A stretch of DNA of 64,000 bases from Legionella bononiensis. Lineage in GTDB: Bacteria; Pseudomonadota; Gammaproteobacteria; Legionellales; Legionellaceae. Location: contig NZ_JADOBG010000007.1 in the NCBI RefSeq assembly GCF_016786215.1, forward strand, positions 1 to 64,000, in the 5' to 3' direction. The notes beneath the pieces were generated by a model, which was not told the DNA's origin, made no database searches, and saw only the letters and a program-made list of their open reading frames with translations. Shown here piece by piece: positions 36,413-53,982 of the stretch; within the stretch, counting starts at the first letter, position 1, and every line of letters starts with the position of its first letter. Both the position numbers and the translations under genes were made by a program.

Positions 36413-36487
36413 GTACTGTTCTGCTAATTGTGTAGAATCGTTACACATCGTGTAACTTCTCAATTATCTCGAAAATTACTCATCATG

Positions 36488-36524
36488 ATCTCCTGGAGCA
36501 GGCATCAAGCCAGCTTCAGGAGAT
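36488..36524. repeat. Short hairpin repeat after hpt
   Basis: The sequence atctcctg (36488-36495) pairs with caggagat (36517-36524), with gcaggcat in the loop. It belongs to the dispersed repeat family seen at 30075-30370. There is no T-run. It may act as the 3' end hairpin of hpt. Confidence 0.5.
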
Positions 36525-36631
36525 GCAGATAGCTCAGCCTCATTAGCCTACAAAATCTAGTTTAATTGTTGAGAATTGATCAATTTTTGTGCTAAAATGC
36601 CTTAAGCCATTTGTATTTAGGTAGCTTTTAT

Positions 36632-39034: not shown

Positions 39035-39063
39035 CATTAAACGCTTTTAGCTGGGAAACTTCC

Positions 39064-39098
39064 TATCAAAACACGCGCTATCGCGCGTTGTTTTGATA
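39064..39098. other. Stem-loop after the 36632-39034 gene
   Basis: The arms tatcaaaacacgcg and cgcgttgttttgata pair across a tatcgcg-type centre with one bulge. It lies 30 bases after the stop and has no T-run. A second small hairpin, gggacga-aagaa-tcgtccc, is at about 39300-39319. The 39035-39370 gap contains an open frame from TTG 39112, but its composition and lack of a binding site do not support a gene. Confidence 0.5.
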
Positions 39099-39370
39099 TC
39101 TACATAACTCTTTGGACTTTAGTTTTTCCACTGATGAAAAGGATATAACAGCCATTGCTCCCCAAAGGCCGGGTGTTCTGGGAAATTTCGTACCTGCCTG
39201 CAAAGAACCCCTACTTGTGTTGGGTAGGCATACGATCAAGTCCTGTATATTCAGGCTTATGCAATTTCAATCCAGATTAGAAAAGTCAGCTGATTCAATA
39301 GGGACGAAAGAATCGTCCCCAAAATTCATTTGAAACAATTGACTGTTTACTAAGTTTTTTCAAGGAAAAC

Positions 39371-40588
39371 CTATATGACATAGTCTTTAAGTTTAATTCC
39401 GTTTGATGCCATAAGAAATTGTTGTCGTAGTTTTTTAATCGCATAATCTTTTGGCAATACCCAGGATTTCAATTTATTTATCCATCCAGAAATTCGGGAA
39501 GTGTTTTTCGGAAGAATAAACTGCATTACGGTTTCTCCTAAAGCCTGATTCAGTTTCACATAATTGCTCATGAGTTGTTCATAAGATCTAAAAGCGGTTT
39601 CATAATTTCCACCAGCTGCAAACAACTCTCCGGCCAACACATAGGCCCCTACAATTGCAATACTACTTCCTTGGCCTGATGTTAAAGCAGGGCTATAAGC
39701 TGCATCACCGACCAGTACGACTCGTCCTTTAGACCAGCTCTGCATGCGCACTTGTCTCACAGCGTCAAAATAAAAATCAGAAGCGCTGTCCATGGCTTTC
39801 AATAAAGCGGGAGTCTCCCATTTACCATTTTGGTACTGTTTAATCAGCGTTTCCTTGTGCTGTTCAACATCTCGATAATTAAACATTAATTGGGTATCTT
39901 GAAAGAGATAAATTACTTTAAAAGCATCATGTTTATTAGTAAAAGACAGGTTAATCTGCTTATTATTTTTCGAGTAAAAAACCTCTTCATTGGCGAAATT
40001 CAAATAATTTTCAACACTGTAAATACCATAATAATAGTGTCCGAGATCATATAAAAAATTCTGCTCATCACCAAAAATTAGGCTGCGCACATTTGAATGA
40101 ATACCATCAGCCCCGACAAGCAGATCAAATGTTCTGGGTTGTCCATGTACCAATTGAACTTCAATTTCATCACCAGTTTGACTTATGGATTTTATAGAGT
40201 CGCCAAAAATATAGTCACAGTTATCCCGAGATGCTTCATAAAGAAGATTTGATAAATCGCCTCTTAAAAGTTCTATATCTTCTTTTTCTCTCATTCCTAA
40301 TTCTGTAGCGGGCATTTCCATAACGGTGTTTCCTTCATCATCAACGAAAATCGCGGATTTTGTATGAACATGAAATTTCTTGACTTGTTCATATATTCCC
40401 ATCGATTTAAGAACATCGATGCATGTTCCTCGAGTATCAACTTTATATCCCCCCGTTCTTAATTGCGGAGACTGTTCGATAACAGTAACTGTAAATCCAT
40501 AGCGTTGCAGCCAATAGGCAAGTGCTGGCCCAGCAATGCTTGCGCCAGAAATCAGGATTCGTGTATTTTTTAATGGTTTAGTTATCAT
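39371..40588 (-). CDS. FAD-dependent aromatic-type monooxygenase
   Basis: This 405-residue protein has the PHBH/TetX-type FAD_binding_3 layout. An N-terminal Rossmann motif (ISGASIAGPALAYWLQRYG, about 11-29) is followed by the acidic ribose-binding Glu in VTVIEQS. A central segment, VGADGIHSNVR, corresponds to the family's DG motif, and VLVGDAAYSPALTSGQGSS (about 290-308) to the GD motif. Such enzymes hydroxylate aromatic or polyketide substrates using NAD(P)H and O2. The substrate is unknown, and the resemblance to TetX does not by itself imply tetracycline resistance. The gene lies in the accessory block and faces the opposite way to its neighbours. Confidence 0.85.
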   Translation of the reverse strand: MITKPLKNTRILISGASIAGPALAYWLQRYGFTVTVIEQSPQLRTGGYKVDTRGTCIDVLKSMGIYEQVKKFHVHTKSAIFVDDEGNTVMEMPATELGMREKEDIELLRGDLSNLLYEASRDNCDYIFGDSIKSISQTGDEIEVQLVHGQPRTFDLLVGADGIHSNVRSLIFGDEQNFLYDLGHYYYGIYSVENYLNFANEEVFYSKNNKQINLSFTNKHDAFKVIYLFQDTQLMFNYRDVEQHKETLIKQYQNGKWETPALLKAMDSASDFYFDAVRQVRMQSWSKGRVVLVGDAAYSPALTSGQGSSIAIVGAYVLAGELFAAGGNYETAFRSYEQLMSNYVKLNQALGETVMQFILPKNTSRISGWINKLKSWVLPKDYAIKKLRQQFLMASNGIKLKDYVI

Positions 40589-40864
40589 ATTTGCTTCTTA
40601 TACCTATTATTATCAAAGGTTTATTTGTACATTCAGTGCGTGTAGGAGCTTTTTTTATTTAAGAGATACCGCAGGGATTTCAATTAAGGAAGTTTATATA
40701 AAAAAATCGAAAAATTATGAGTTAGGTAACTTAATGGCTCAACTAATAGTACCACATCCCATACTAACTCAACAATAATGCGATATGATCTGAATCAAGC
40801 CAAGGGTATGTTTTTCTGACACAATTCTCTTATGAGCTATACTCAATACAGAAGGGTACAGCTT

Positions 40865-41977
40865 ATGAACTTTAAAAAACAGTACAATAGAACAGCATTG
40901 GGTGTCTATTTGCCTTTACTGATGGGGTTGGCTTTTCCACTTTATGGAGATGATGTCCCACAGACGACTGCGGAGCAATCCATTTTACCAGAGGTAATAG
41001 ATCCTGAAGAAAATGGCTGGCTGCCAGATATTATTGGTTTACCTGATGAGGATCAGGTTGAACGCCTAACCGAACATGTTGCTGAGGTGATGGCAGAAGA
41101 GCAAGACGAGAAATGTAATGCGATAGACTATAACCTCAGGATGCTTGTTTTTCAAAACTTTGTTATATATCAGCATATGGCCAATGCTCAAGACCATTAT
41201 TTCAATGAAAATTTGCCTTTAAAATATGCCCATATTCTAGCCATGATTCTGAAAGAAAGCAGCGGTGATCCAACCAATGTCACTGACATGAATGGCCACT
41301 CAATATCCACAAGCAAACCTGATACTAATTTGCAACGCTGGTATAATTTGTTAAAAATAACAATGAACAATGGAGTTAGATTTAATTATCAAACTAACTT
41401 TGGCTTAACTCAACTGTCAGTAGACCGGTTGTTTGTTGCCTTCAAGTTAGCTCATGGAGCGACTCATAGTAAGGATTTTCTAGAGGGGAAATATGGTGAT
41501 GCAACTCCTGGCAGAGTAACTTTGAATACTGCTATCGCCATTCGCCGTTTGATTTGGTTTTATCAGGATATTGCTCAAGGACGATTAACGCAAAAGGATG
41601 AACGTATTCCTCAAGAAGATATTTACAAAGCTGAATTTAATTCACGATACCAAAATGGGTTAAAGATGGCCCTTTTATATTGTGGTACTCGATTTTTGTT
41701 TCATGTAGATAAACAATATATTTGGGCCAATCAAAACTCAACCTTTGAACATGCGATTGCATCTATTGCTTATTGCAAACTGGGTAATGTACAAACTGGA
41801 TATGGTAAATATGAAATGAATGAACAGTGTTTTGCAGAGTGGGTAACACTATGCCCGGCTTTAAATATGAATATAGCGCTACTTACACCACTCAGATATT
41901 TTCAAACCAGAGATGACAAACCCGTCTGTCTGGATACATTTAATCGCCTGCTTAATAAAAAACCTCAAAACCAATAG
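40865..41977 (+). CDS. Exported lytic transglycosylase-like protein
   Basis: The start is at 40865 (MNFKKQYNRTALGVYLPLLM), with AAGGG about 8 bases upstream. An upstream ATG at 40832 lacks a site. The product of about 370 residues begins with a signal peptide. After an acidic linker, residues about 120-200 resemble an SLT/lysozyme-like core: YAHILAMILKESSGDPTNV supplies a candidate catalytic Glu (about 130), and TNFGLTQLS resembles the family's G-L/I-TQ segment. Four or more Cys in the second half may form disulfides. The match is partial, so the muralytic assignment is tentative. Confidence 0.55.
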   Translation: MNFKKQYNRTALGVYLPLLMGLAFPLYGDDVPQTTAEQSILPEVIDPEENGWLPDIIGLPDEDQVERLTEHVAEVMAEEQDEKCNAIDYNLRMLVFQNFVIYQHMANAQDHYFNENLPLKYAHILAMILKESSGDPTNVTDMNGHSISTSKPDTNLQRWYNLLKITMNNGVRFNYQTNFGLTQLSVDRLFVAFKLAHGATHSKDFLEGKYGDATPGRVTLNTAIAIRRLIWFYQDIAQGRLTQKDERIPQEDIYKAEFNSRYQNGLKMALLYCGTRFLFHVDKQYIWANQNSTFEHAIASIAYCKLGNVQTGYGKYEMNEQCFAEWVTLCPALNMNIALLTPLRYFQTRDDKPVCLDTFNRLLNKKPQNQ

Positions 41978-42580
41978 TCTGTAAAATCTCACATACATCA
42001 TATTAACTCCTGTCTGAGCGAACATGTTAGCTACAGAATCTCACGAGGTTTGAGTAGAGAAACAAAAGATAATAATGGGGGCATTGTTTGTATACAGAGC
42101 CTAGCAATGAGGAAGTGCTTAAATAGATATAATAGATAAAACTCAGAGGAGAGTTATTTAATGATGATCAGCTGATTTTACACCTTGAATAGATAGCGTT
42201 ATTAAATGGCCCCCCTTTAATGACAACTACTGGATTGAAGTGGGAGATAATATTGGCGAAAAATAGGGTTGGCCTAAAGCCAGGCCAAACTGGATAAAAA
42301 AATAATCAGTTTATTTGTTTATTATCATTAAAAGAGCATCTAAGGTCGATTAGTGTCTTGAAAAAGAGCACAACATGGTCAACACTTAGGGTAGTTTAAT
42401 AGTTTTTCGAGGATTCAAATATCCACTTTGAGAGACTAATTTGGTGCTCCTTATAGAGTAATAAATGACACGAATTACGGATCAATGAAATAAAAAAATA
42501 AGTCAAAACATTACAGGTGTTGAATGATCAGTGTTAGTACAAAAAATCCATGATTAGTGCCTTTTATCAAGAGGTGTTCA
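41978..42580 (+). other. 603-base gap before the biosynthetic cluster
   Basis: No intact gene is seen. At 42160-42267 there are short coding-like stretches (for example NDNYWIEVGDNIGEK) broken by stops and probably a frameshift. These are followed by a hairpin, ttggcct-aaagcc-aggccaa, at 42269-42288 with an A-rich tail. This could be the decayed end of a gene. The 200 bases before 42581 are AT-rich and presumably carry the cluster promoter, but no unambiguous -35/-10 pair was identified. Confidence 0.35.
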
Positions 42581-43720
42581 ATGAATGATATGAAACAAGT
42601 CCAACTTAACCCTGACTGCCGATTTATTTGTTTAAAATGTGGCAAAGAGGATTCTTTAAGCCTCAACTTTCATTGTAAAGCGTGCAGTGGATTAATCGCC
42701 TGCGACTATCCAGGCACAGAATTTTCCATAGATATGCGCTATTCCGGGATCTGGCGTTTTCATAAAATTTTACCTATTTTATTTCATCCGTTTTATGATT
42801 GTACAGAAACTCCTTTGATTCCATTAGAAGAGGGTGAGAGCATCTTGTATGGGAAAAACGAAGGAGTATTGCCCAGTATCAGTACCAAATACAGGCAATG
42901 TGTTATGTCTGTTCCCAGTTTAATTGCACTGGGTTGCAAAGAAGTAGCTTTGGTGTCTTCGGGAAACACAGGTTCAAGCTACATGTATTGGGCCAATCTA
43001 GTTCAGGGGGCCTTACGAGTTCATATTTTTGCATCAACGCTTCATGCACAAAGACTTTATTTTACCAATCCCTATGCAACAGTCCATGTAGCAGAAAATA
43101 GCCTCTCTGCTGCAGATGAAGCCTGTATGGAATTTTCTAAAAAAGAACATATCTTTTATGAAGGAGGGTTCTTTAATCCCTTTAGACGTGAAGGTTTAAA
43201 AACCTCATACCTTGAAAGTTTATTACGAATGGATTGGGATGTGGATGTGTTTATTCAAGCGGTATCGAGTGGTATGGGCATTATTGGCTTTCACAGTCTC
43301 GTAAAATTGCTTTATAAACAAGGTTTTATAAAGAAAATCCCCAAAATTGTCTGTGTGCAACAAGATACCTGCCAACCTATGTGTCTCTCTTATAATGAAG
43401 GGGCGGCGGAGATCATTGAATCGTATATTCCAGAAGATCCCGTGGGTTCTGCCAAAGCAATTTTACGCAGCAATCCTAAAAAATCATATCCTTATGTCAA
43501 ACAGGTGGTCGATGAAACGAATGGGTGTTTTTGCATGGTAACCCAGGACGAGATAGAGCACAGTTTTAATGTTTTGGCAAAAAAATACGTCAATGCATGT
43601 CATACTTCTGCCGCTACCGTGGCTGCATATGAGAAATTAAAAAACACTGGCTGGATTCAACCTGGCGATAGATGTGTCGCAATGTTGACTGGGGGATTAT
43701 ATCATGGACAGGATCTCTAA
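42581..43720 (+). CDS. Threonine-synthase-like PLP enzyme with zinc ribbon
   Basis: The start is at 42581, with AAGAGG six bases upstream. A GTG at 42557 is less likely. The 379-residue fold-type II PLP enzyme begins with a zinc ribbon (CLKCGKED ... CKAC, about 14-38) as in short-type threonine synthases. The PLP Lys is probably in ISTKYRQ (about 102), where the usual SFKDR is altered. The phosphate-binding segment follows as VSSGNTGSS (about 126). The C-terminal MLTGGLYH segment matches the family. The modified Lys region suggests a substrate other than O-phosphohomoserine. The gene overlaps the next by 17 bases, so the two are translated together. Confidence 0.8.
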   Translation: MNDMKQVQLNPDCRFICLKCGKEDSLSLNFHCKACSGLIACDYPGTEFSIDMRYSGIWRFHKILPILFHPFYDCTETPLIPLEEGESILYGKNEGVLPSISTKYRQCVMSVPSLIALGCKEVALVSSGNTGSSYMYWANLVQGALRVHIFASTLHAQRLYFTNPYATVHVAENSLSAADEACMEFSKKEHIFYEGGFFNPFRREGLKTSYLESLLRMDWDVDVFIQAVSSGMGIIGFHSLVKLLYKQGFIKKIPKIVCVQQDTCQPMCLSYNEGAAEIIESYIPEDPVGSAKAILRSNPKKSYPYVKQVVDETNGCFCMVTQDEIEHSFNVLAKKYVNACHTSAATVAAYEKLKNTGWIQPGDRCVAMLTGGLYHGQDL

Positions 43721-44579
43721 TGACGAATACTATGAAGGTGTAGCTTACGCTCATTTCGGAGAGCTTGTGCAAGGCTGGTTGCCTTCCAATACTCCCTTTT
43801 TAGTGTCTTGCCCAATCACGGTGCGCTGTATTTGTCGTATTTTCAAACACATATTCGTTCAAGACCAAAATCTCGAATTCAAGAAAGCTCAATTTTTAGA
43901 GTTATTTAATAACCTGACGCACACATCAATCGACAATAAAATAATGTTTGAAAGTGTAATACCACGCGGTGTTGGCCTCGGAAGTTCTACTTGTGATCTG
44001 GTTGCCTTATTTCGTGCCTTAAATCTGATGGCTGGAAATCAGTATTCGAATGAACTATGTGGACAAATTTTATCGAAAATAGAACCCTCTGACAGTACAT
44101 TATACCAAGGACTATTGGTGTTTAATCATTATACTTCCGAACCGATTTATTTTATTAAAAACATTATTTCCGACATGGTGATTGTGGGGGTATTTGATGA
44201 CAAAATCGTCGATACAATTCAATACAATAAGACTGTATATTATTCTAAACGTGAACAAGACCGCTATGTCAACTTATTGAACGATTTTATCTACTCCTGC
44301 GAGCATGGGGATGAGGAATTATTTGGTTCTATCACCACCACAAGTTTCATAATGAATCAAAAACGCAATCCAAATCGATATGTGAAGCAATTAAAACAAC
44401 TGATGGATGACAAAATTGTCTATGGATTAATTGGTTCTCATAGTGGTTCTTGCGCTGGAGTATATATATCCCTTCAAGACCATGAGCTACAAAACAAAAT
44501 TGAATATATTAAAAGTTATTTGATCAAACAAGGGTTAAAGCCGCTGATCTTTCGAACCGATTTTGGGATGAACTCTTAG
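43704..44579 (+). CDS. PduX-like GHMP-family amino acid kinase
   Basis: GGGGGA lies about 7 bases before the ATG, inside the end of the preceding gene. The 291-residue protein has the PduX-type N-terminus (HFGELVQGWLPSNTPFLVSC, about 12-31), the GHMP ATP loop PRGVGLGSSTCD (about 87-98) and the C-terminal HSGSCAGVYIS (about 246-256). PduX makes O-phospho-L-threonine for cobalamin assembly, but no cobalamin genes are here. Coupling to a threonine-synthase-like enzyme suggests it phosphorylates a hydroxy amino acid consumed by that partner. Homoserine kinase activity is the main alternative. Confidence 0.75.
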   Translation: MDRISNDEYYEGVAYAHFGELVQGWLPSNTPFLVSCPITVRCICRIFKHIFVQDQNLEFKKAQFLELFNNLTHTSIDNKIMFESVIPRGVGLGSSTCDLVALFRALNLMAGNQYSNELCGQILSKIEPSDSTLYQGLLVFNHYTSEPIYFIKNIISDMVIVGVFDDKIVDTIQYNKTVYYSKREQDRYVNLLNDFIYSCEHGDEELFGSITTTSFIMNQKRNPNRYVKQLKQLMDDKIVYGLIGSHSGSCAGVYISLQDHELQNKIEYIKSYLIKQGLKPLIFRTDFGMNS

Positions 44580-44649
44580 GTACTTGTTGGACCTATGCCC
44601 GACAGGGTGCTCACACTGATTTTTTATGGATTATATAGGTGAGAAGTCC

Positions 44650-45783
44650 ATGCACGATATCATTATCATTGGCGGGGGTATAGCCGGGCTTTCATTAGCC
44701 TATCGATGCATGCAATCTCACAAAGTACTTTTGATTGAACAAAATGATTTTTTTAGCGGAACAACCTCGCAATCGCTAGCAGGGTTTTCATCGTCTTATT
44801 CTTCAGGACTCTTTACACCCTATCTGCAAGAGTGCATCAATTTCTACACTAACTTAAATCCAAACATCATCAAAGCACGTGGCCGCTTGATTTCCTCTTT
44901 GTTACCCGCCGGACACATGAAAGATCCTAGCTACAAAGACCTCATCACTCTATCTTCAGTTACTGATCTAACAAACTACGGTTTTGCATCCGAAACCATT
45001 GAAGCCACAAAGCATTTAATTGATTTTAATCAATTCAAAACCCTGTATTTTGAAAAAAACTATTTCGATCTGAACATAGAGAGCATTAAAAACGAACTCT
45101 TAACAGCTCTTCAGGCTTGTAAAAAAATAGCACTTCATCCATTTGAAACCGTCCTGAGCATTCAGAAGCAACACAATCTCTGGCAGATAAAAACTGCATT
45201 AACCACCTACAGAGCACCCATAGTGGTCAATGCATCCGGACCATGGACCACTCAATTGTTTAAAAATCAGCATGTTCATCTACAAAGAGAAGACTGTGCT
45301 TTGATTGGTTTTGAAGCTTTACCTGAGGAAGTCAACACTATCCCAGCCATCACTGACGATGTGATGAGTTTTTTCATAAAACCCAAGTTGCACCAGAACA
45401 ATGAATTTATTTTGGCCTCCAACATCACAAAAAAGCCAATCAACGATCTCAGCACCTCTTCAGTGCCTGATAATAAAGCTATCGAACACATGCTTGATGT
45501 ACTGAAACAAGTCATAGTTCCAATGCCTATCTTAAGATCGACCTGGGTCGGCATAAAAACTAGTACTGAAGATTCACTTCCCTTGATTGGTTTTGATGCG
45601 AACAAAGCAGGATTATTTTGGTACACTGGCTTTGCAGGATATGGCAATAAACTCGCTCCATTTTTCTCACAGATGGCCTTTGATCTAATCAATGAATCGA
45701 GTTCAATTAAGAATGAAATTGTAAATAAATTGTCACCCAAAAGATATTCTGACTCTCAAGAAGATCCCAGGATTGGATGCTAG
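44650..45783 (+). CDS. DAO-family FAD-dependent amine/amino acid oxidoreductase
   Basis: The start is at 44650 (MHDIIIIGGGIAGLSL), preceded by AGGTGAG. The ATG at 44626 is a weaker choice. The 377-residue protein has a GxGxxG dinucleotide motif (residues 7-12), followed by the FAD-binding Glu in LLIEQND. A DAO-type substrate domain follows, and the C-terminal STEDSLPLIGF...GLFWYTGFAGYG segment (about 308-335) is typical of glycine oxidase/D-amino acid dehydrogenase relatives. It would oxidise a C-N bond of an amine or secondary amino acid. It follows the kinase after 70 bases on the same strand and is probably part of the operon. Confidence 0.8.
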   Translation: MHDIIIIGGGIAGLSLAYRCMQSHKVLLIEQNDFFSGTTSQSLAGFSSSYSSGLFTPYLQECINFYTNLNPNIIKARGRLISSLLPAGHMKDPSYKDLITLSSVTDLTNYGFASETIEATKHLIDFNQFKTLYFEKNYFDLNIESIKNELLTALQACKKIALHPFETVLSIQKQHNLWQIKTALTTYRAPIVVNASGPWTTQLFKNQHVHLQREDCALIGFEALPEEVNTIPAITDDVMSFFIKPKLHQNNEFILASNITKKPINDLSTSSVPDNKAIEHMLDVLKQVIVPMPILRSTWVGIKTSTEDSLPLIGFDANKAGLFWYTGFAGYGNKLAPFFSQMAFDLINESSSIKNEIVNKLSPKRYSDSQEDPRIGC

Positions 45784-45897
45784 TATTAATTCAGGAGTAG
45801 TTTTTTGTATCATTTTCAATTTTCAATCGAGGATACTATACTCAATTTAGGCATGTACCGCAAAGACACGTAGAGCCAATTTTTATAGAGTAGGCTA

Positions 45898-48800
45898 ATG
45901 GAAACTACACTAAGTTGTATTGAGCTTATTGAACAATATTGTATAAATTATGAATCAAAACCTGCGTTTGGTTTTCGTAAAACAGAACTCATAAAATTTA
46001 ATCATAGAAATAAAATACACTATTTACCTGAGTTTGAAACACTAAATTATAAGCAAGTCTGGCAACGAATATCATCCATTGCTACTGGATGGAATCATTC
46101 TAATTTTGTGGGCCCAAATGATTTTGTGGGTATTTGCGGATTCGGCAGTCCGGAGTTTGTTTTAGTTGAACTGTCCTGCCTCTATCTCTGTGCTATATCT
46201 GTTCCCTTGCAAACAAATATGAGAGAACAAGAACTGACAAAAATTGTTATAGATACGAATATGAGATGTTTAGTTGCTAGTTTAAAGCAATTACATTTGA
46301 TTTGTAATGCAGTGACTCATTGCCCATCTGTGAAAAGCATTATTGTTATTGACTGTCATTTAGAAGATGAAGAACAATCCGATCTGCTCAATACCATGCG
46401 AGGGATGTTTAGACATAAAAAAATAAATTGTGACCTACTGACATTAGAGGATTTAGAGCGTTTGGGAAAACGACATGTAGTTTTGGAAAAAATCCTTCCT
46501 CAAAAAGGATCTGATCAACTTGTAACATTGGTTTACACTTCAGGAAGTACCGGTTTACCCAAAGGTGCTATGATCACTGAAAAAGCATGGAGGGAATTAT
46601 GGAGTAAGCCCGGGTATTATAAACATGATCCGGATACCCCTTTAATCACACTCAACTTTATGCCGTTAAGCCATATGTTTGGACGCATGATTGTTATAAA
46701 TTCTTTTATGCAGGGTGGAACTACCTACTTTGCTTTAGAATCAGATTTGTCCACTATTTTTGAAGACTTTCTCCTTGTAAGACCTACAGTTTTATATCTC
46801 GTCCCACGAATTTCTGAACTGATTTACCAGAATTTTCAAATAGCTGTAGTGAATCGTTTGCAAGCAAATAAAAATTCCAAAAGGTCAGATATAGAAAATG
46901 AAATCATATCTGAAATGAAATACAGAACTTTAGGGGATCGACTTTCTTATGCCATTACAGCATCAGCACCAACCTCACCTGAAGTAATGAGTTTTTTAAA
47001 ACGTTGTTTTAATATACCCGTGATTGATGTCTATGGTTCTACGGAACTCGGCGTGTTGTTATTAAATAATCAAACATCACCACAAAATGTAATAGATTAT
47101 AAGCTGGTTAGTATACCTGAGCTCAATTATTTCACTACGGATAAACCTTATCCCCGAGGTGAATTATATATGAAAACCAATCGTGCAATTATTGGCTACT
47201 ATAAAGATCCGAGTGCAACTGCAGATTTATTTGATGCAGATGGATATATTAAAACAGGTGATATTGTTGAGGAACACGCGCCAAACACACTATTTTTGAT
47301 TGATAGGGTAAAGAATGTTATTAAATTAGGAAGCGGCGAATTTGTTACTTTGTTGCGGTTAGAGCATCTTTTTTCAAGTGGCAGCAGATTAATTAAACAA
47401 ATTTTCCTCTATGGAAGCAGTCAGCGCTCCTATCTTTTATCTGTCATAGTTCCCAATATTAGCCTTATAAATGAGAAGCTAGCTGAACAAGGTTTGCCCA
47501 CAGATCCAATTCATGTGAAACAACTCTTGCTTCAGGAGATTCATTCAATTGCAAAATCAGAACAATTACGATCTTACGAAATTCCATTGGACATTATCAT
47601 TGAAATGGAGCCATTTTCACAAGAAAATCAATTGGTCACTGAAAGTAATAAATTAGCACGAAACAATTTAAAGAAGAAGTATGAACAATCCTTAGAAAAA
47701 CTGTATGAACAAATTGAACAAAAACAACTCGGGGATCTCGCCAACTTAGGACATACTGATCCAAGTACAGAGCATATAATCCGCGCCATTCTTGGAGTAC
47801 CCAATGTTGAGTTTGGCAATTCCAGTTTTGTTGATTTAGGTGGCGATTCTTTGGATGCCGTACGATTAACGAATATGATTCAAAGTATTTATTCGATTTC
47901 AATACCCGTTAGTCTCATTTTAAATCCTACTTACAGCATAAGAAATTTAATCAAAGATGTGAACAATAAACGTCATGGCAAAACAGAGCGTATCAGAGCC
48001 CATGCTATTTCATTTACAGATGTACACCCATATAAAGCAAACACACCAGAAGAAATTAAACTGTTTGCTAGTGATTTAAAATTGTCGACATTTTTTAGTA
48101 CCCATGAAATAGAACATGCCAAAACATTAGCTCAAGTAAAAAAAGGGGAAAAAAGTTCCAAAATATTATTAACTGGAGCAAATGGTTATCTGGGAAGATT
48201 TTTAGCATTGGCTTTATTAGAAAGATTATCGATTAATCATGGAACATTAGTATGTTTCGTTAGAGCACAAAATAACTCCCAGGCCCGTAATCGAATGTTA
48301 AATTGTTTTCAACACAGTGAATCAGCGCTTAAGGATCGTTTTATTCAACTAGCCCAAAAACATCTTGTTGTCTATGCCGCAGATTTAACCTCTCCTAACT
48401 TTGGTTTAAACGATGAAATTTATAATTTACTGGCAACTGAGGTTGATATGATTTTACATAATGGAGCACTTGTAAATCATGTTTTTTCCTATGAGCAATT
48501 ATTTGAAACTAATGTAATGGGAACTGTGGAGGTCATCCGTTTTGCATTTAAAAATAAATTGAAACCAATAAGTTTTATTTCAACTGTAGCAGTTTCGAGG
48601 GGATTACAACATCGTTCTATTGTTTTAGAAACAGAAGATATTCGCGAACAATGGCCAATTCGTTATAACGGCAAAGGTTATGCAGAGGGTTATGCAACCA
48701 GCAAATGGGCAGGGGAGGTTTTGCTAAAAAATTTCAGTGAGGAATTTAATCTTCCTGTACATATATTTCGTTGTGGAATGATTCTCGCTCATAGTAACTA

Positions 48801-49362
48801 TTCCGGTGAAATAAATACCGAGGATTTCTTTACCCGATTAATTGCTGGAATAATACAAACAAGAATAGCGCCAAAATCATTTTATAGAGTCGACAATGAA
48901 ACCAGCTTCAAACCCTCATTTGATGGCCTCCCAGTCGACTTTATAGCTGACACAATAGCAGATGATGCATTAATAGCAGCGACGGGGCATGCTACCTACG
49001 TTGTTACTAATCCAACAGGAAATAGTACAGTCAACTTTGATGTCATCATAAATTGGATAGAACAATTAGGCTATAAATTAGATAAAATTGAACATTATGA
49101 AGAATGGTATCATGAATTTACCAAACGCTTAAAACGATTAACAAAAATACAAAAAAAATACTCACCATTGCATATCATATACAAATGGGAAAAACCCGGT
49201 GAGATTGAGCAGGAAATAAAACTAGATAATTCACAATTTTATAACTTGGTAAAACTGCACTCAGGTTCCGATCTACCAGTTATCAATAAGGCATTTATTA
49301 ATAAATGTTTGATGGATATGTACACACTAAAAATAATCGGGTTACCGAAAAAGGGGAGGTAA
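45898..49362 (+). CDS. Carboxylic acid reductase-type enzyme (A-T-R)
   Basis: This 1154-residue enzyme has the full CAR layout. The adenylation domain (about 1-630) contains LVYTSGSTGLPKGAM (about 210-224) and NFMPLSHMFGR. The carrier domain contains FVDLGGDSLDAVRL, with the phosphopantetheine Ser at about 651. The thioester reductase domain has the NAD(P)H motif LLTGANGYLGRF (about 758) and the catalytic YATSK (about 931). CARs activate an acid with ATP, load it on the carrier and release an aldehyde. The length matches known CARs. A phosphopantetheinyl transferase must act in trans; none is in the window. A 114-base gap separates it from the flavoenzyme gene, so it may have its own promoter. 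Confidence 0.9.
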   Translation: METTLSCIELIEQYCINYESKPAFGFRKTELIKFNHRNKIHYLPEFETLNYKQVWQRISSIATGWNHSNFVGPNDFVGICGFGSPEFVLVELSCLYLCAISVPLQTNMREQELTKIVIDTNMRCLVASLKQLHLICNAVTHCPSVKSIIVIDCHLEDEEQSDLLNTMRGMFRHKKINCDLLTLEDLERLGKRHVVLEKILPQKGSDQLVTLVYTSGSTGLPKGAMITEKAWRELWSKPGYYKHDPDTPLITLNFMPLSHMFGRMIVINSFMQGGTTYFALESDLSTIFEDFLLVRPTVLYLVPRISELIYQNFQIAVVNRLQANKNSKRSDIENEIISEMKYRTLGDRLSYAITASAPTSPEVMSFLKRCFNIPVIDVYGSTELGVLLLNNQTSPQNVIDYKLVSIPELNYFTTDKPYPRGELYMKTNRAIIGYYKDPSATADLFDADGYIKTGDIVEEHAPNTLFLIDRVKNVIKLGSGEFVTLLRLEHLFSSGSRLIKQIFLYGSSQRSYLLSVIVPNISLINEKLAEQGLPTDPIHVKQLLLQEIHSIAKSEQLRSYEIPLDIIIEMEPFSQENQLVTESNKLARNNLKKKYEQSLEKLYEQIEQKQLGDLANLGHTDPSTEHIIRAILGVPNVEFGNSSFVDLGGDSLDAVRLTNMIQSIYSISIPVSLILNPTYSIRNLIKDVNNKRHGKTERIRAHAISFTDVHPYKANTPEEIKLFASDLKLSTFFSTHEIEHAKTLAQVKKGEKSSKILLTGANGYLGRFLALALLERLSINHGTLVCFVRAQNNSQARNRMLNCFQHSESALKDRFIQLAQKHLVVYAADLTSPNFGLNDEIYNLLATEVDMILHNGALVNHVFSYEQLFETNVMGTVEVIRFAFKNKLKPISFISTVAVSRGLQHRSIVLETEDIREQWPIRYNGKGYAEGYATSKWAGEVLLKNFSEEFNLPVHIFRCGMILAHSNYSGEINTEDFFTRLIAGIIQTRIAPKSFYRVDNETSFKPSFDGLPVDFIADTIADDALIAATGHATYVVTNPTGNSTVNFDVIINWIEQLGYKLDKIEHYEEWYHEFTKRLKRLTKIQKKYSPLHIIYKWEKPGEIEQEIKLDNSQFYNLVKLHSGSDLPVINKAFINKCLMDMYTLKIIGLPKKGR

Positions 49363-49467: not shown

Positions 49468-50835
49468 ATGGCATTACTCAAAAAATCAGCAGGTTATTGT
49501 GCACTAGAGAATACCCTTTTAAGAGGGATGAATGATTATAATGAACTTACTTTTAATGAACAGAAGATTACTCCAATCATTTACAGGCGCAATAATCCAT
49601 CTTTTCAAAATGTCCATCTAATAAATCTGGAAGCTGATTTATCAATTTGGAATAATGGGGCATGGTTCATCCTTAAACCACGTTTTTATAATCAAATAAT
49701 ACAAACTAATAGAGAAGACTTAAATCTCTTAATTAGTTCTTTTTTAGGTTTAAACGAAACAATAAATATAGATAAGGCATTATTAAATGAGGCACTCATT
49801 TTAAATACGAATAATGATGTCGTTTTTGACGCATTCATCATGATGAAAATCATGATGGAAAAGCTCAATCGGGTTTGTCCACAAAGGGCCACGGACTTTG
49901 AAGACTATCAAACAAAGAATTGGTTAAAACAATTAAGCCACCATGAACAAACCCTTGCAAGTTCCCTCTGGCCGGGCATTAAAGATAAAACCCTATGGCA
50001 GCAGAGCTTCAACTTAAATCTTGATGAAACAGTAGGGATGGTTTTTGCGTGTTTACAAGAAATGATTGCTCAAATTGCAATTAACAGCTGTTTACAAAGT
50101 ATTGCTTTGAATGCAGGTTTAAAACATAAAAATCTGGGTGATTATAAGGATTCATTAAAGAAACAGGGGATATGTGATTTAACTACCCAAGACCTGGATA
50201 CTCTAGCTGACTTTCTTTGTAGTTTGCCAGAAACCCAGAGAGTTTATGAATGGCTTGTTACGCAGGACAGTCAGATAGCTCGCACTTTATCGCAATTATT
50301 AGAGGCACTATTAGAACAACCTAAAAATGTGCAAAAATTTCTTCAAACTTTAAATTTACAACAAGGAACAGCCCAGTTAGAGCTTGAAAAAATTGAAGAA
50401 AAAGACAAATTAAAACTTCAAATAATCAAAGAAAACACAGTCTGTGCTAATCAGGTTTCATTATTGCTTGATAAATTATCACAAGAAATCCAAAATGAAG
50501 GATCTGCTGAGCAGATTTCAGCGATATCTGGGTTGAGGGAACAACTAAGGCCACATTTAGAAACACTTAAAACAGCCCAACTCGATAGAAATGCTTTTAA
50601 AGATCTCGCTACTGGTGCAATCAAAAGTATCCAGCCTCTCTTTAAAGAAGAGCCGAGCTGGTATAATTATTTTTCACAGCTTGCAAAACTAATAGCTAAT
50701 TTTTTCATCGGTTTAGTAAATGACCGTGAAAAAGACCCAAATCGTTTTTTCAAATTAAATAAGGAAGAGGATATTATAAAATTTGAAATGAATATTGAGG
50801 CAGTTTGTGGCATTTGTTCCAATCCGGTAATTTAG
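49468..50835 (+). CDS. Unknown helical protein, effector candidate
   Basis: No family was recognised for this 455-residue protein. It has no signal peptide. The N-terminal 130 residues look globular and mixed (SFQNVHLINLEADLS). Residues 160-400 are strongly helical, Leu/Gln/Lys-rich and probably coiled coil in part (LELEKIEEKDKLKLQIIKEN, about 306-325). A moderate hydrophobic helix (FSQLAKLIANFFIGLV) lies at about 408-424. It follows the CAR gene by 105 bases on the same strand, but composition suggests a lineage-specific protein rather than a pathway enzyme. Confidence 0.6.
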   Translation: MALLKKSAGYCALENTLLRGMNDYNELTFNEQKITPIIYRRNNPSFQNVHLINLEADLSIWNNGAWFILKPRFYNQIIQTNREDLNLLISSFLGLNETINIDKALLNEALILNTNNDVVFDAFIMMKIMMEKLNRVCPQRATDFEDYQTKNWLKQLSHHEQTLASSLWPGIKDKTLWQQSFNLNLDETVGMVFACLQEMIAQIAINSCLQSIALNAGLKHKNLGDYKDSLKKQGICDLTTQDLDTLADFLCSLPETQRVYEWLVTQDSQIARTLSQLLEALLEQPKNVQKFLQTLNLQQGTAQLELEKIEEKDKLKLQIIKENTVCANQVSLLLDKLSQEIQNEGSAEQISAISGLREQLRPHLETLKTAQLDRNAFKDLATGAIKSIQPLFKEEPSWYNYFSQLAKLIANFFIGLVNDREKDPNRFFKLNKEEDIIKFEMNIEAVCGICSNPVI

Positions 50836-51255
50836 CAGCACATCTCATCCAAGCCTTCAACCCTTTATTCCAAAAGCTCTTAGAGAAGATGTTTCGCTAT
50901 GGTCATGTAGCAAATGCCTTGAATCAAATTAGTGGATTGGGTTTAATTATCGAAATATGTCATGTGTGGGTTTGGGTATCTAGTGACACTAAAAGATAGA
51001 AAGGGATTGTGAAGGATACTGGTTTTAAATTGGGGACTTAATTTGCTAAAATATAGTGTAAGGCACTGATAGTTAATACATTTATTCAATCATTGTCAGT
51101 TTGGGCTGGATATATGGAAAACCCGGATTAGGCTCTTTTTGCCAAAATCTAAAAACATCGGCCAACCGAGGAATGGATCGAAACCGAACAAACAAAAATT
51201 TCTGAAGTTTGCATTTTGAATCCCTAGTCGAAGAATAGAAAGAGGAACAAAAAGA
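50836..51255. other. 420-base gap with no supported gene
   Basis: Two short frames cross this gap on each strand, but none has a binding site or protein-like pattern beyond a few residues. On the minus strand, 51082-51180 reads FWQKEPNPGFPYIQPKL, which could be a decayed remnant. The last 60 bases hold the ribosome binding site (AGAGGAAC) for the gene at 51256. Confidence 0.35.
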
Positions 51256-52527
51256 GTGGCCAATAAACACATTAAAAGAATCATTCAATTAAAAGAAGAT
51301 GGTCTCTTCGTGGGAGACTCCCTCCTCGAGTTAATGCAACTTTCAGCTGATGAATTTATCGCCCGTCTTAAATATTATCAATTGAAGGAGCGAATTTTGC
51401 CAGCACTGGGTGTAGAGGAAAATACGATTCTTTCCAACCCCGATGAATTTTTTGAACAATTAAAATCCGACGTACGACAATGTCATGATAATATTTGTGC
51501 TGATGTTATGGCTTTAGATGCAGCAATCCAAGAAAAACTAGTCGAGCCACTGCTACAAAATTCTTCGACAGAAGGGAATACGGTGACCTCTATTAATGGT
51601 GTAATTTCCAGCATTGCAAATTATCTCAACAACATGCCTAAAGAGTTGCTTTTTGCAGATGACAAGCAAATAGATGATCTTAAAGCCACCTATGTAGAAA
51701 TAGTAGTGAACGAATGGTTTTCCATCAAAGATGATTTACTTTCAAACTACCGTTCACACGTAATTGATTGGTTGTATTTGAGCAAAGCAATATATCATCT
51801 GCTAAAAGCAATCATTCCAATTAGAAATCAAACCCCGATCAATCTTGATATGGTTTTTGAAAGTTGCAAGCAATGTCAAAATGAAGTGGATAAACTTCTT
51901 ACCTCCACTATTGTCCTAAAGTATTTCCATGTTCTATTTGCTTTAAATGCAGCTCGTGCTGAACTGATTTGCAAGCAACCCGTGTTTAAATCTCAAAGAT
52001 TCCCAGTAAATGAATTTGGCAAGTTAGTTGAAGAATTAATTATCGTAGAAAATAAACTAAAAACTCTACTTATAGATCAAGGTGACGTGGCGGGGGCTAC
52101 TAAACTGGATAATGTCACGGATGATATTAATAATAGAAAAATAACAGTTGCACTTGACAGCATAAATAAAAATATTGGAATAATTATCGCCAATATCCGC
52201 CGCCAATTATTCAAGGTTCAAAATAATGAATTAATTAAGGATAAAGTTAATCCAGATACGAACTTATATTTCCAAGTTGGTTTATGTTTTCTGGTTGAAA
52301 ATGTATCGATGTATCGACCAAGTTTCACTTACAAGATTTCCAAAAATGTCACCTTCGCTATACCCTATGAAGTTGAAAAGGAAATGCCTAAAATATTTTC
52401 AACTGGTCTTATCCATAAAATGAAAGCAAACAAACTTTTACCTTTTATGTTTTTTTCCGGAGAGACTTTTCCAGGTAATCATGAAACCACTTCTTTTCCT
52501 AGTGAAAGCAATATCCCTCGGTTATAA
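51256..52527 (+). CDS. Unknown helical protein, effector candidate
   Basis: The gene starts with GTG at 51256, with AGAGGA about 9 bases upstream. The 423-residue product matches no recognised family. It is almost wholly helical and charged, without signal peptide or clear membrane helix, apart from a hydrophobic patch near 172-195 (WLYLSKAIYHLLKAIIPI). The C-terminal 40 residues are polar and Ser/Pro-rich (GNHETTSFPSESN). Neighbours and composition suggest a lineage-specific accessory protein, possibly translocated. Confidence 0.6.
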   Translation: MANKHIKRIIQLKEDGLFVGDSLLELMQLSADEFIARLKYYQLKERILPALGVEENTILSNPDEFFEQLKSDVRQCHDNICADVMALDAAIQEKLVEPLLQNSSTEGNTVTSINGVISSIANYLNNMPKELLFADDKQIDDLKATYVEIVVNEWFSIKDDLLSNYRSHVIDWLYLSKAIYHLLKAIIPIRNQTPINLDMVFESCKQCQNEVDKLLTSTIVLKYFHVLFALNAARAELICKQPVFKSQRFPVNEFGKLVEELIIVENKLKTLLIDQGDVAGATKLDNVTDDINNRKITVALDSINKNIGIIIANIRRQLFKVQNNELIKDKVNPDTNLYFQVGLCFLVENVSMYRPSFTYKISKNVTFAIPYEVEKEMPKIFSTGLIHKMKANKLLPFMFFSGETFPGNHETTSFPSESNIPRL

Positions 52528-52848: not shown

Positions 52849-53982
52849 TTAACGTTCACGCAGGGCGGAATGTTTGGCTTTTATTATGGGTTTAAGTATG
52901 TACTCTAAAACTGATTTCTTACCCGTGAGTATATCAACTGTAGCGAGCATACCTGGAATGATGGGCAATGGTTTTTGAGCCGTTCCCAAGTGATTTTTAT
53001 AAGTACGAACCCGTATTACGTAATAACTTTCATTTTTTTTATCATTTTCATCAATAATAGTATCAGCACTAATTTGCTCTACTTCACCTTCTAGTCCACC
53101 ATAGATTGAAAAATCATAAGCTGTAATCTTTACAACTGCTTTTTGCCCTGGATGGATAAACCCAATATCAGCTGGTCTTATTTTAGCCTCTATCAGGAGT
53201 GTATCATCAAGGGGGACGACTTCAATAATATCACTTCCGGGTTGAACCACACCGCCGATAGTGGTTGTTTTAATTTGCTTTATAATCCCGTAAACCGGGG
53301 ATCTTACTGTAGTGCGAGTTAAACGATCCTTATCTGCTTTATTCGCTTCAATTAAGGCCGATAGGTCGCCTCGGGCTTTATTTAATTTATCCAACTCATC
53401 GGATTTAAATTTATCAATGTTTCCTTTTATTTCGTTTACAGTCCTATCCAGACGGATTACTTCAACTTCAGAAACAGAGCCATTTTTTAATAAAGGACGA
53501 GTCATATCTAATTCTTTTTGTGCTAATTCAAGAGACTTTATCAGTTGCACTAATTCTCTCATTCGTGATTCGTAGAGTGATTGCTGGTCTTTAACAAGGC
53601 TAGGATAACTCTTTTTAAGATCCTCCGGAAAGGCAGGTTCAGTCTGACTTATTTCCGCATTAATCCTTATAATTTCCAATTTCAGAGCATCAATTTTTTT
53701 CTCTGCTTCTGCATAACTTGACATAAATCGAGTATTGTCAATTTGCATCAATATTTGATCTTTCTTAACTATTTCCCCTTCTTTAACAAAGATCTTCTGT
53801 ATGATACCCCCTTCAAGATTTTGGATAACCTGTATCTCACTGGATGGTATGACCTTGCCTTCACCAGTCGTCACCTCATCAAGTATTGCGTAATTAGCCC
53901 ATATTATAGCAACTAAAATGAATACTGCTGATGTCCATAAAATAATATGGGCAAAAGCTCGAGACTTGTGAGTTTTACTCAT
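52849..53982 (-). CDS. lssD: Type I secretion membrane-fusion protein LssD
   Basis: This 377-residue HlyD-family adaptor has one N-terminal membrane helix (about 12-30) after a short cytoplasmic tail. A lipoyl/barrel-sandwich half follows (VIQNLEGGIIQKIFVKEGEI, about 47-66), then a periplasmic coiled coil (about 75-205), the second lipoyl half (TTVRSPVYGIIKQIKT) and a C-terminal beta domain. It bridges the LssB ABC exporter to an outer-membrane channel of the TolC type, which is not in the window. The gene lies one base after lssB, so the two are co-translated. Confidence 0.92.
   Translation of the reverse strand: MSKTHKSRAFAHIILWTSAVFILVAIIWANYAILDEVTTGEGKVIPSSEIQVIQNLEGGIIQKIFVKEGEIVKKDQILMQIDNTRFMSSYAEAEKKIDALKLEIIRINAEISQTEPAFPEDLKKSYPSLVKDQQSLYESRMRELVQLIKSLELAQKELDMTRPLLKNGSVSEVEVIRLDRTVNEIKGNIDKFKSDELDKLNKARGDLSALIEANKADKDRLTRTTVRSPVYGIIKQIKTTTIGGVVQPGSDIIEVVPLDDTLLIEAKIRPADIGFIHPGQKAVVKITAYDFSIYGGLEGEVEQISADTIIDENDKKNESYYVIRVRTYKNHLGTAQKPLPIIPGMLATVDILTGKKSVLEYILKPIIKAKHSALRER

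What the first reader, a model, noticed from the sequence alone, without database searches (positions are those of the whole stretch)
42581..49362. Four-gene cluster resembling an undescribed small-molecule pathway
A zinc-ribbon threonine-synthase-like PLP enzyme, a PduX-like GHMP kinase overlapping it by 17 bases, a DAO-family flavoenzyme and a full-length carboxylic acid reductase lie in one direction. Seen directly: the family motifs of each and the overlap. Known: PduX phosphorylates L-threonine, fold-type II PLP enzymes can displace a phosphate from O-phospho amino acids (as SbnA does with O-phosphoserine), DAO enzymes oxidise amines, and CARs make aldehydes. Inferred: the set could make an unusual diamino acid or dehydroamino acid and then its aldehyde. 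I know of no described Legionella pathway with this combination, but I could not search for one.
Basis: partly seen in the sequence, partly recalled or inferred. Interest (0 to 1): 0.88.

Follow-up and report, generated by a model that had tools for sequence, protein, structure and literature searches.

The report
Mobile four-gene amino-acid cassette in Legionella
Three related Legionella species carry the same compact set of four enzyme genes, at two different chromosomal sites, that probably turns a common amino acid into an unusual one and also makes a reactive aldehyde; the product is unknown.

Summary
Four intact same-direction genes lie at 42581-49362: a zinc-ribbon fold-II PLP enzyme, a PduX-like GHMP kinase overlapping it by 17 bases, a DAO flavoenzyme and a carboxylic acid reductase. 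In L. moravica the cassette sits elsewhere, and each genome lacks it at the other's site, so the genes behave as one unit. All four are under purifying selection. The PLP gene was found in 3 of 143 Legionellales genomes.

The best lead is the kinase. In a plasmid collection, the five relatives most like it stand beside fold-II PLP genes and argininosuccinate-lyase-like genes; partners scanned resemble SbnA. This suggests phosphorylation of an amino acid, displacement of the phosphate by an amine, then C-N cleavage. Here a threonine-synthase-like enzyme would replace SbnA, and the flavoenzyme would replace the lyase or dehydrogenase. Substrates, nucleophile and the CAR acid are inferred; AlphaFold models failed. 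I rate it a new variant of a known kind.

The parts
42354..42580 (+). Leader DNA shared with both orthologous cassettes, with a conserved block at about 42354-42403 and a conserved GAGGTG before the ATG; likely carries the promoter (inference)
   Evidence: blastn boundary and alignment of three species; promoter-like matches in the region are not above chance (25 found, 28.8 expected)
42581..43720 (+). Zinc-ribbon, threonine-synthase-like fold-II PLP enzyme (379 aa), P0001
   Evidence: Pfam PALP 99.5 bits; NCBIfam best PRK08197 127 bits (cut-off 303), cysteate synthase 86 (cut-off 325), thrC 28 (cut-off 167); K103 and NPFR kept, NS of a true threonine synthase replaced by GF; dN/dS 0.07-0.08
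43704..44579 (+). PduX-like GHMP-family small-molecule kinase (291 aa), P0002
   Evidence: Pfam GHMP_kinases_N; GELxQG, IPxGxGLGSSTxD, EPSDS and HSG stretches shared with PduX and with kinases beside SbnA-type PLP enzymes; dN/dS 0.09
44650..45783 (+). DAO-family FAD oxidoreductase (377 aa), P0003
   Evidence: Pfam DAO 94.5 bits; phmmer best D-arginine dehydrogenase (E 2e-9), then glycine oxidase (E 3e-8); GGGIAG and G(I/V)KT..ED.LPLIG in 3 of 3 species; dN/dS 0.21-0.25
45898..49362 (+). Carboxylic acid reductase, A-PCP-R (1154 aa), P0004
   Evidence: NCBIfam NF041592 1082 bits (cut-off 1300); PDB 5msc over 15-1146, E 2e-235; core motifs intact in 3 of 3 species; dN/dS 0.20-0.24
42354..49346 (+). 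The cassette: of window 36001-57000, the only stretch that aligns with the 20.9-kb L. moravica locus; absent from this genome at the L. moravica site, and absent from L. moravica at this site

Best explanation
The four genes are one transferable biosynthetic cassette. The PduX-like kinase phosphorylates the side-chain hydroxyl of a small amino acid, most likely L-threonine or L-serine. The TS-like PLP enzyme expels the phosphate and adds a nucleophile at the beta carbon, most likely an amine (ammonia or an amino acid), giving a 2,3-diamino acid or its N-linked adduct. The DAO flavoenzyme oxidises the C-N bond of the adduct (or of a later cyclic amine), the job done by SbnB or by an argininosuccinate-lyase-like enzyme in related clusters. 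The CAR reduces a carboxylic acid to an aldehyde that can condense with the amine. Shown: the genes, their integrity, selection, co-mobility, and a kinase-PLP partnership in distant relatives. Inferred: every substrate and the order of steps.
For: Four-gene order kept in 3 of 3 species that have it, at two chromosomal sites with reciprocal empty sites. dN/dS 0.07-0.25. Kinase motifs of the PduX kind. Of 17 non-Legionella kinases compared, the five that score best (99-108 bits) are all from clusters with a fold-II PLP gene and a lyase-like gene. 9 of 17 plasmid kinase neighbourhoods that I chose to read hold a fold-II PLP gene; 7 of the 9 also a gene annotated as lyase or argininosuccinate lyase, with Pfam Lyase_1 in 3 of 3 of these scanned. 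The PLP partners match SbnA-family TIGR03945 best among PLP models in 4 of 4 scanned, below its cut-off. SbnA displaces phosphate from O-phospho-L-serine with glutamate (PMC12414870, passages). The PLP enzyme also hits the cysteate synthase model over residues 16-374; cysteate synthase evolved from a threonine synthase (title of Graham 2009, seen in the reference list of PMC12068725). CAR motifs complete; the genome has one ACPS-superfamily gene in a 256-aa frame that could charge it.
Against: The Legionella PLP enzyme is not SbnA-like: no SbnA model among its 7 NCBIfam hits and no blastp match to the relatives' PLP partners (best E 0.18; that search also missed E. coli ThrC, so it is a weak test). 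The cassette has no lyase or SbnB, and DAO as its substitute is analogy only. The kinase is only 25-27% identical to the five best relatives; the other four PLP-linked kinases (71-82 bits) score no better than the phosphatidyltransferase-linked ones (68-77), the PLP-linked kinases are not one clade, and the Legionella branch is unresolved. In genome samples the 5 non-Legionella kinase hits lie, by eye, among cobalamin or propanediol genes, as PduX does. DAO and CAR have two to three times the dN/dS of the other two, which could mean a looser link. No structure model succeeded.
Confidence: 0.4

Rival explanations
1. Elimination or sulfur chemistry: the PLP enzyme removes phosphate from O-phosphothreonine/serine to give a dehydroamino acid or keto acid, or adds sulfite or sulfide as cysteate synthase and O-phosphoserine sulfhydrylases do.
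For: Cysteate-synthase model matches 16-374 of 379 at 86 bits; zinc-ribbon TS-like scaffold as in that family; no second-substrate information.
Against: Score far below that model's cut-off (325). The kinase's best plasmid relatives are linked to SbnA-type partners. No recognisable sulfur gene among the four of the cassette.
Confidence: 0.2
2. Gamma chemistry: the kinase acts on a homoserine-like substrate and the PLP enzyme is a true threonine-synthase relative making a threonine analogue or vinylglycine-type amino acid.
For: The PLP enzyme is in the threonine-synthase-like group; the NPFR stretch aligned with the substrate-binding region of threonine synthase is kept. The kinase shares the GHMP fold with ThrB.
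Against: thrC model 28 bits against cut-off 167, and the NS pair next to that stretch is replaced by GF. Kinase-ThrB similarity is minimal (65 aa, E 1e-4).
Confidence: 0.15
3. Two neighbouring functions: kinase plus PLP is one pathway, and DAO and CAR are unrelated genes that travel with them.
For: Kinase and PLP overlap and have low dN/dS, DAO and CAR higher; the DAO-CAR gap varies from 114 to 339 bp.
Against: All four moved together; none of 45 genomes of the genus has the PLP gene without the CAR; DNA homology with L. moravica ends at the end of CAR.
Confidence: 0.12
4. Spare threonine synthesis (thrB/thrC) or spare cobalamin PduX.
For: Family resemblance only.
Against: Own hom-thrB-thrC run; ThrB 332 bits (NF002288, cut-off 194) and ThrC 252 (cut-off 167); no CobD over cut-off, 0 of 5 hits.
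Confidence: 0.03

Closest known systems
SbnA/SbnB L-2,3-diaminopropionate synthesis (staphyloferrin B)
   Same: Fold-II PLP enzyme expected to act on an O-phospho amino acid, followed by an oxidoreductase that would cut a C-N bond
   Different: TS-like zinc-ribbon enzyme instead of SbnA; DAO flavoenzyme instead of NAD-dependent SbnB (cofactor recalled); dedicated kinase; CAR added; no siderophore genes among the four
Kinase + SbnA-type PLP + argininosuccinate-lyase-like clusters (Kitasatospora L015, Streptomyces L025/L026, Sinorhizobium L016/L017, Mesorhizobium L032, Azospirillum L027)
   Same: PduX-like kinase with the same motifs near a fold-II PLP gene (next to it in all but L026, where it is 6 kb away)
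   Different: PLP enzymes not detectably similar by blastp; a lyase and often ATP-grasp or NRPS genes there, DAO and CAR here. I recall, from no call, that such genes make 2,3-diaminobutyrate for pacidamycin-type antibiotics; npsG is proposed for that residue in PMC4572928 (passage), without its family being named there
PduX L-threonine kinase of B12 salvage
   Same: Sequence motifs and similarity over most of the length
   Different: No cob or pdu genes among the neighbours; no CobD over cut-off in the genome
Cysteate synthase (methanogens)
   Same: TS-derived enzyme acting on O-phosphoserine (substrate recalled)
   Different: Far below the family cut-off; a different gene neighbourhood
Carboxylic acid reductases
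   Same: A-PCP-R architecture and motifs
   Different: 32-38% identity to the CARs of 13 plasmid records. A L. moravica CAR, listed at 36% to the Nocardia iowensis CAR in PMC11064420, was not among the eight of 17 that made vanillin, and such strains showed no CAR band, so its substrate is unknown

Membership tests
Threonine synthase ThrC (TIGR00260) | Score over the curated cut-off of 167 bits | tested here: not met
   28 bits; the genome's own ThrC scores 252
Threonine synthase-like fold-II PLP enzymes | PALP domain, PLP lysine, N-terminal zinc ribbon | tested here: met
Cysteate synthase (TIGR03844) | Score over cut-off of 325 bits | tested here: not met
   85.6 bits
SbnA family (TIGR03945) | Match to the model | tested here: not met
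   Not among the 7 families hit at E<=0.001
PduX-like GHMP kinases | GELxQG, GxGLGSST, E-P-S/T-D-S, HSG stretches along the length | tested here: met
   Alignment with two PduX from pdu/cob operons and 14 other related kinases; the exact letters vary among them
PduX (B12 threonine kinase) | Role in cobalamin synthesis with CobD | tested here: not met
   No cob genes adjacent; CobD 0 of 5 hits over cut-off
PduX-like GHMP kinases | Phosphorylates L-threonine | not testable with these tools
   needs an assay
Homoserine kinase ThrB (TIGR00191) | Score over cut-off of 168 bits | tested here: not met
   18.5 bits
DAO family flavoenzymes | Pfam DAO over cut-off, GxGxxG at N-terminus, C-terminal G..R/K..D..P..G stretch (motifs recalled) | tested here: met
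DAO: any NCBIfam equivalog (glycine oxidase, sarcosine oxidase and others) | Score over cut-off | tested here: not met
   None of the 25 shown of 30 families is over its cut-off; best 46 of 251 needed
Carboxylic acid reductase | A-PCP-R domains with core motifs | tested here: met
Carboxylic acid reductase NF041592 | Curated cut-off of 1300 bits | tested here: inconclusive
   1082 bits over 5-1146 of 1154: right family, below the equivalog line

The most novel reading that the evidence does not exclude
A new way to make and cap unusual beta-substituted amino acids: a threonine synthase remodelled to put nitrogen (or sulfur) on the beta carbon of phosphothreonine or phosphoserine. The CAR supplies an aldehyde that closes a five-membered ring with the two heteroatoms, and the DAO flavoenzyme oxidises that ring to an imidazoline or thiazoline. 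This would be azoline synthesis without a ribosome or peptide synthetase, packed in four genes that move as a unit.
Probability: 0.1. Interest if true: 0.85.

Novelty: new variant of a known kind. Interest (0 to 1): 0.6.

Why it matters
If right, this is a compact pathway in which a threonine-synthase-like enzyme and a flavin oxidase do the work of SbnA and SbnB, with a dedicated kinase and a carboxylic acid reductase. It would extend the known ways of making diamino acids and would give a few Legionella species a small molecule for which my searches found no description. The reciprocal empty sites make it a natural presence/absence experiment in metabolite profiles.

Tried and rejected
Duplicate threonine operon: rejected. 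B12 kinase: rejected. Recent transfer between the three species: not supported, because cassette dS (0.71-1.08 own-moravica) brackets that of one flanking core gene (0.845); an old presence with relocation, or two old acquisitions, fits better. Mobile-element carriage: no tRNA and only short, imperfect repeats (2 direct families, 3 inverted pairs). Viral copies: 0 relatives of the PLP enzyme confirmed among 56 pattern matches. AlphaFold2 on the PLP and DAO proteins with three-row alignments failed (mean pLDDT 31 and 32), so no fold search was run. The kinase tree did not resolve where the Legionella branch joins, and two long branches met. The fourth Legionella CAR (G023, 36%) lies in a 14-kb stretch in which I saw, by eye among frames of 150 aa or more, no kinase, PLP or DAO gene. 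Neighbourhoods of PLP-enzyme hits in plasmids (H39, H29, H23, H32, H36, H21, H24) showed no PduX-like kinase gene in their annotation (one has no annotation).
Full report
WHAT IS THERE. The window lies in a 4.21-Mb genome, of the genus Legionella by its relatives, whose cassette is closest to that of L. quateirensis (PLP protein 97% identical). Four same-direction genes stand at 42581-43720, 43704-44579, 44650-45783 and 45898-49362. They encode a zinc-ribbon PALP enzyme, a GHMP kinase, a DAO flavoenzyme and an A-PCP-R carboxylic acid reductase. The 17-base overlap of the first two is real and is kept in both relatives. Core motifs of the CAR are intact in all three species. The genome has one ACPS-superfamily gene, in a 256-aa frame, that could charge it.

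ONE UNIT, TWO SITES. The PLP gene is present in 3 of 45 genomes of the genus and in 3 of 143 genomes of the order at E<=1e-20. In a sample of 398 genomes of the phylum only the window's own has it at E<=1e-25. The CAR occurs in 4 of the 45, three of them the same genomes. A pattern scan of one genome for each of 84,980 species, which finds close relatives only, returned L. quateirensis and L. moravica; by contig coordinates these are the same two genomes, G017 and G014. In L. quateirensis the flanks match the window; in L. moravica they do not. Of window 36001-57000, only 42354-49346 aligns with the L. moravica locus. L. moravica keeps the genes that flank the cassette in the window (40832-41977 and 52849-53982) about 70 bp apart without it. 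This genome keeps the L. moravica flanks about 900 bp apart without it. At the window's site the extra DNA also includes two genes of unknown family, 49468-52527; in L. quateirensis different genes stand in that place. Further left, 36433-40821 also fails to align with that L. moravica stretch, so the neighbourhood varies beyond the cassette.

SELECTION. Pairwise dN/dS (own-quateirensis, own-moravica): PLP 0.07, 0.08; kinase 0.09, 0.09; DAO 0.25, 0.21; CAR 0.20, 0.24; a flanking HlyD gene as control 0.03, 0.04. Cassette dS is of the same size as the control's: own-moravica 0.71-1.08 against 0.845, own-quateirensis 0.23-0.45 against 0.411. The genes are maintained, and the cassette does not look like a recent exchange between these species; one control gene was used.

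NOT THREONINE SYNTHESIS, NOT B12. The genome has a hom-thrB-thrC run on contig C12 (hom read by eye). ThrC scores 252 bits (cut-off 167) and ThrB 332 (NF002288, cut-off 194). The cassette's PLP enzyme scores 28 with the thrC model and its kinase 18.5 with thrB. No CobD reaches the family cut-off, 0 of 5 hits.

THE KINASE. It keeps the GELxQG, IPxGxGLGSSTxD, EPSDS and HSG stretches that it shares, with small changes, with PduX from a Listeria pdu operon and a Peptoclostridium cobalamin operon. In a plasmid collection 70 records carry relatives; I chose 17 neighbourhoods to read, for spread and passing over near-copies. Nine hold a fold-II PLP gene (L015-L018, L025-L028, L032), four a CDP-alcohol phosphatidyltransferase set (L029, L030, L031, L033), two cob/pdu genes (L035, L036), one a fold-I aminotransferase (L034), and one has no annotation (L037). 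In one of the nine (L026) the PLP gene is 6 kb away. Seven of the nine also have a gene annotated as lyase or argininosuccinate lyase; Pfam finds Lyase_1 in 3 of 3 of these scanned, and PALP in 6 of 6 PLP partners scanned. In four of four PLP partners scanned, the best PLP-enzyme model is TIGR03945, SbnA, at 203-240 bits, below its cut-off of 350. Of 17 non-Legionella kinases compared, the five most similar are PLP-linked (99-108 bits). The other four PLP-linked ones (71-82) overlap with the phosphatidyltransferase-linked ones (68-77); the two PduX give 54-61, the Vibrio kinase 56 and E. coli ThrB 32. Also against this: identity to the best five is only 25-27%; the PLP-linked kinases need three label changes on the tree, and the Legionella branch is unresolved. 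The five non-Legionella hits in genome samples (G180 of 369 genomes at E<=1e-8; G593, G651, G688, G762 of 398 at E<=1e-10) lie, by eye, among cobalamin or propanediol genes, G688 on a 3.8-kb contig.

THE PLP ENZYME. Lysine 103 sits at the PLP position, and the NPFR-x-EG stretch of the threonine-synthase substrate region is kept. The Asn-Ser pair before it is replaced by Gly-Phe in the alignment with a plasmid threonine synthase that is over the thrC cut-off (L048). I recall, from no call, that those residues and the arginine bind the phosphate of O-phosphohomoserine. It is 24-29% identical to its matches in the 20 of 47 plasmid records shown, mostly annotated as threonine synthases. By blastp it has no significant match to the SbnA-type partners above, nor to E. 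coli ThrC, so that test is weak. So the partnership with a PduX-like kinase seems to have been made with a different PLP scaffold.

THE FLAVOENZYME AND THE CAR. DAO relatives that oxidise amines of amino acids come up at E 2e-9 (D-arginine dehydrogenase) and 3e-8 (glycine oxidase). A lysine stands where D-arginine dehydrogenase has an arginine, by my reading of the alignment; that this arginine binds the carboxylate is recalled. The CAR acid is unknown. PMC11064420 (passages and sections 14 and 15) put a CAR of L. moravica, WP_028384907.1, into Corynebacterium. It is not among the eight of 17 that made vanillin, and strains without activity showed no CAR band, so the test says nothing of its substrate. 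That this is the cassette's CAR is my inference from there being one match in that genome.

MECHANISM. SbnA replaces the phosphate of O-phospho-L-serine with glutamate (PMC12414870, passages). SbnB then oxidises the adduct (recalled). In seven clusters above a lyase-like gene stands where SbnB would be. I propose the same logic here with a TS-like enzyme and a flavin oxidase. The CAR would supply an aldehyde that condenses with the amine. The kinase-to-PLP step is the best-supported part; the last two steps are analogy.

LITERATURE. Legionella secondary metabolism was surveyed with antiSMASH in 15 species including L. moravica (PMC5126622, section 13 and passages). The terms 'carboxylic acid reductase' and 'thioester reductase' do not occur in its main text. 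Its Table S3 could not be read, so the cluster may be listed there. Searches that named parts together found no description of the set, nor did those for the diamino-acid analogues or PduX in biosynthetic clusters; these are listings, several of them capped.

VERDICT. A real, conserved, relocatable four-gene unit, most likely a pathway with an unknown product and a new variant of the phospho-amino-acid/PLP substitution kind.

Noticed in passing
39371-40588 (-): FAD monooxygenase-like gene that matches the tetracycline destructase model at 345 bits, below its cut-off of 550; present at the same place in L. quateirensis.
   Followed up: no
49468-52527 (+): Two genes of no known family directly after the cassette; at this site L. 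moravica lacks them and L. quateirensis has other genes instead: a variable site.
   Followed up: partly
L011:17707-18318: In L. quateirensis a DotI/IcmL-family gene (132 bits) sits in the variable site after the cassette, among unrelated neighbours as read by eye.
   Followed up: no
L069/L070, contig C22 of the genome: A perfect inverted duplication of at least 13.3 kb, one arm starting about 30 bp from the contig end; may be an assembly artefact. It holds a threonine/serine dehydratase beside an ornithine-cyclodeaminase-family gene.
   Followed up: partly
42354-42403: A block upstream of the PLP gene is more conserved among the three species than most of the leader; possible promoter or operator.
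   Followed up: no
L029, L030, L031, L033: PduX-like kinases beside a nucleotidyltransferase and a CDP-alcohol phosphatidyltransferase on plasmids of rhizobia and related bacteria: they may make an unusual phospholipid head group.
   Followed up: no
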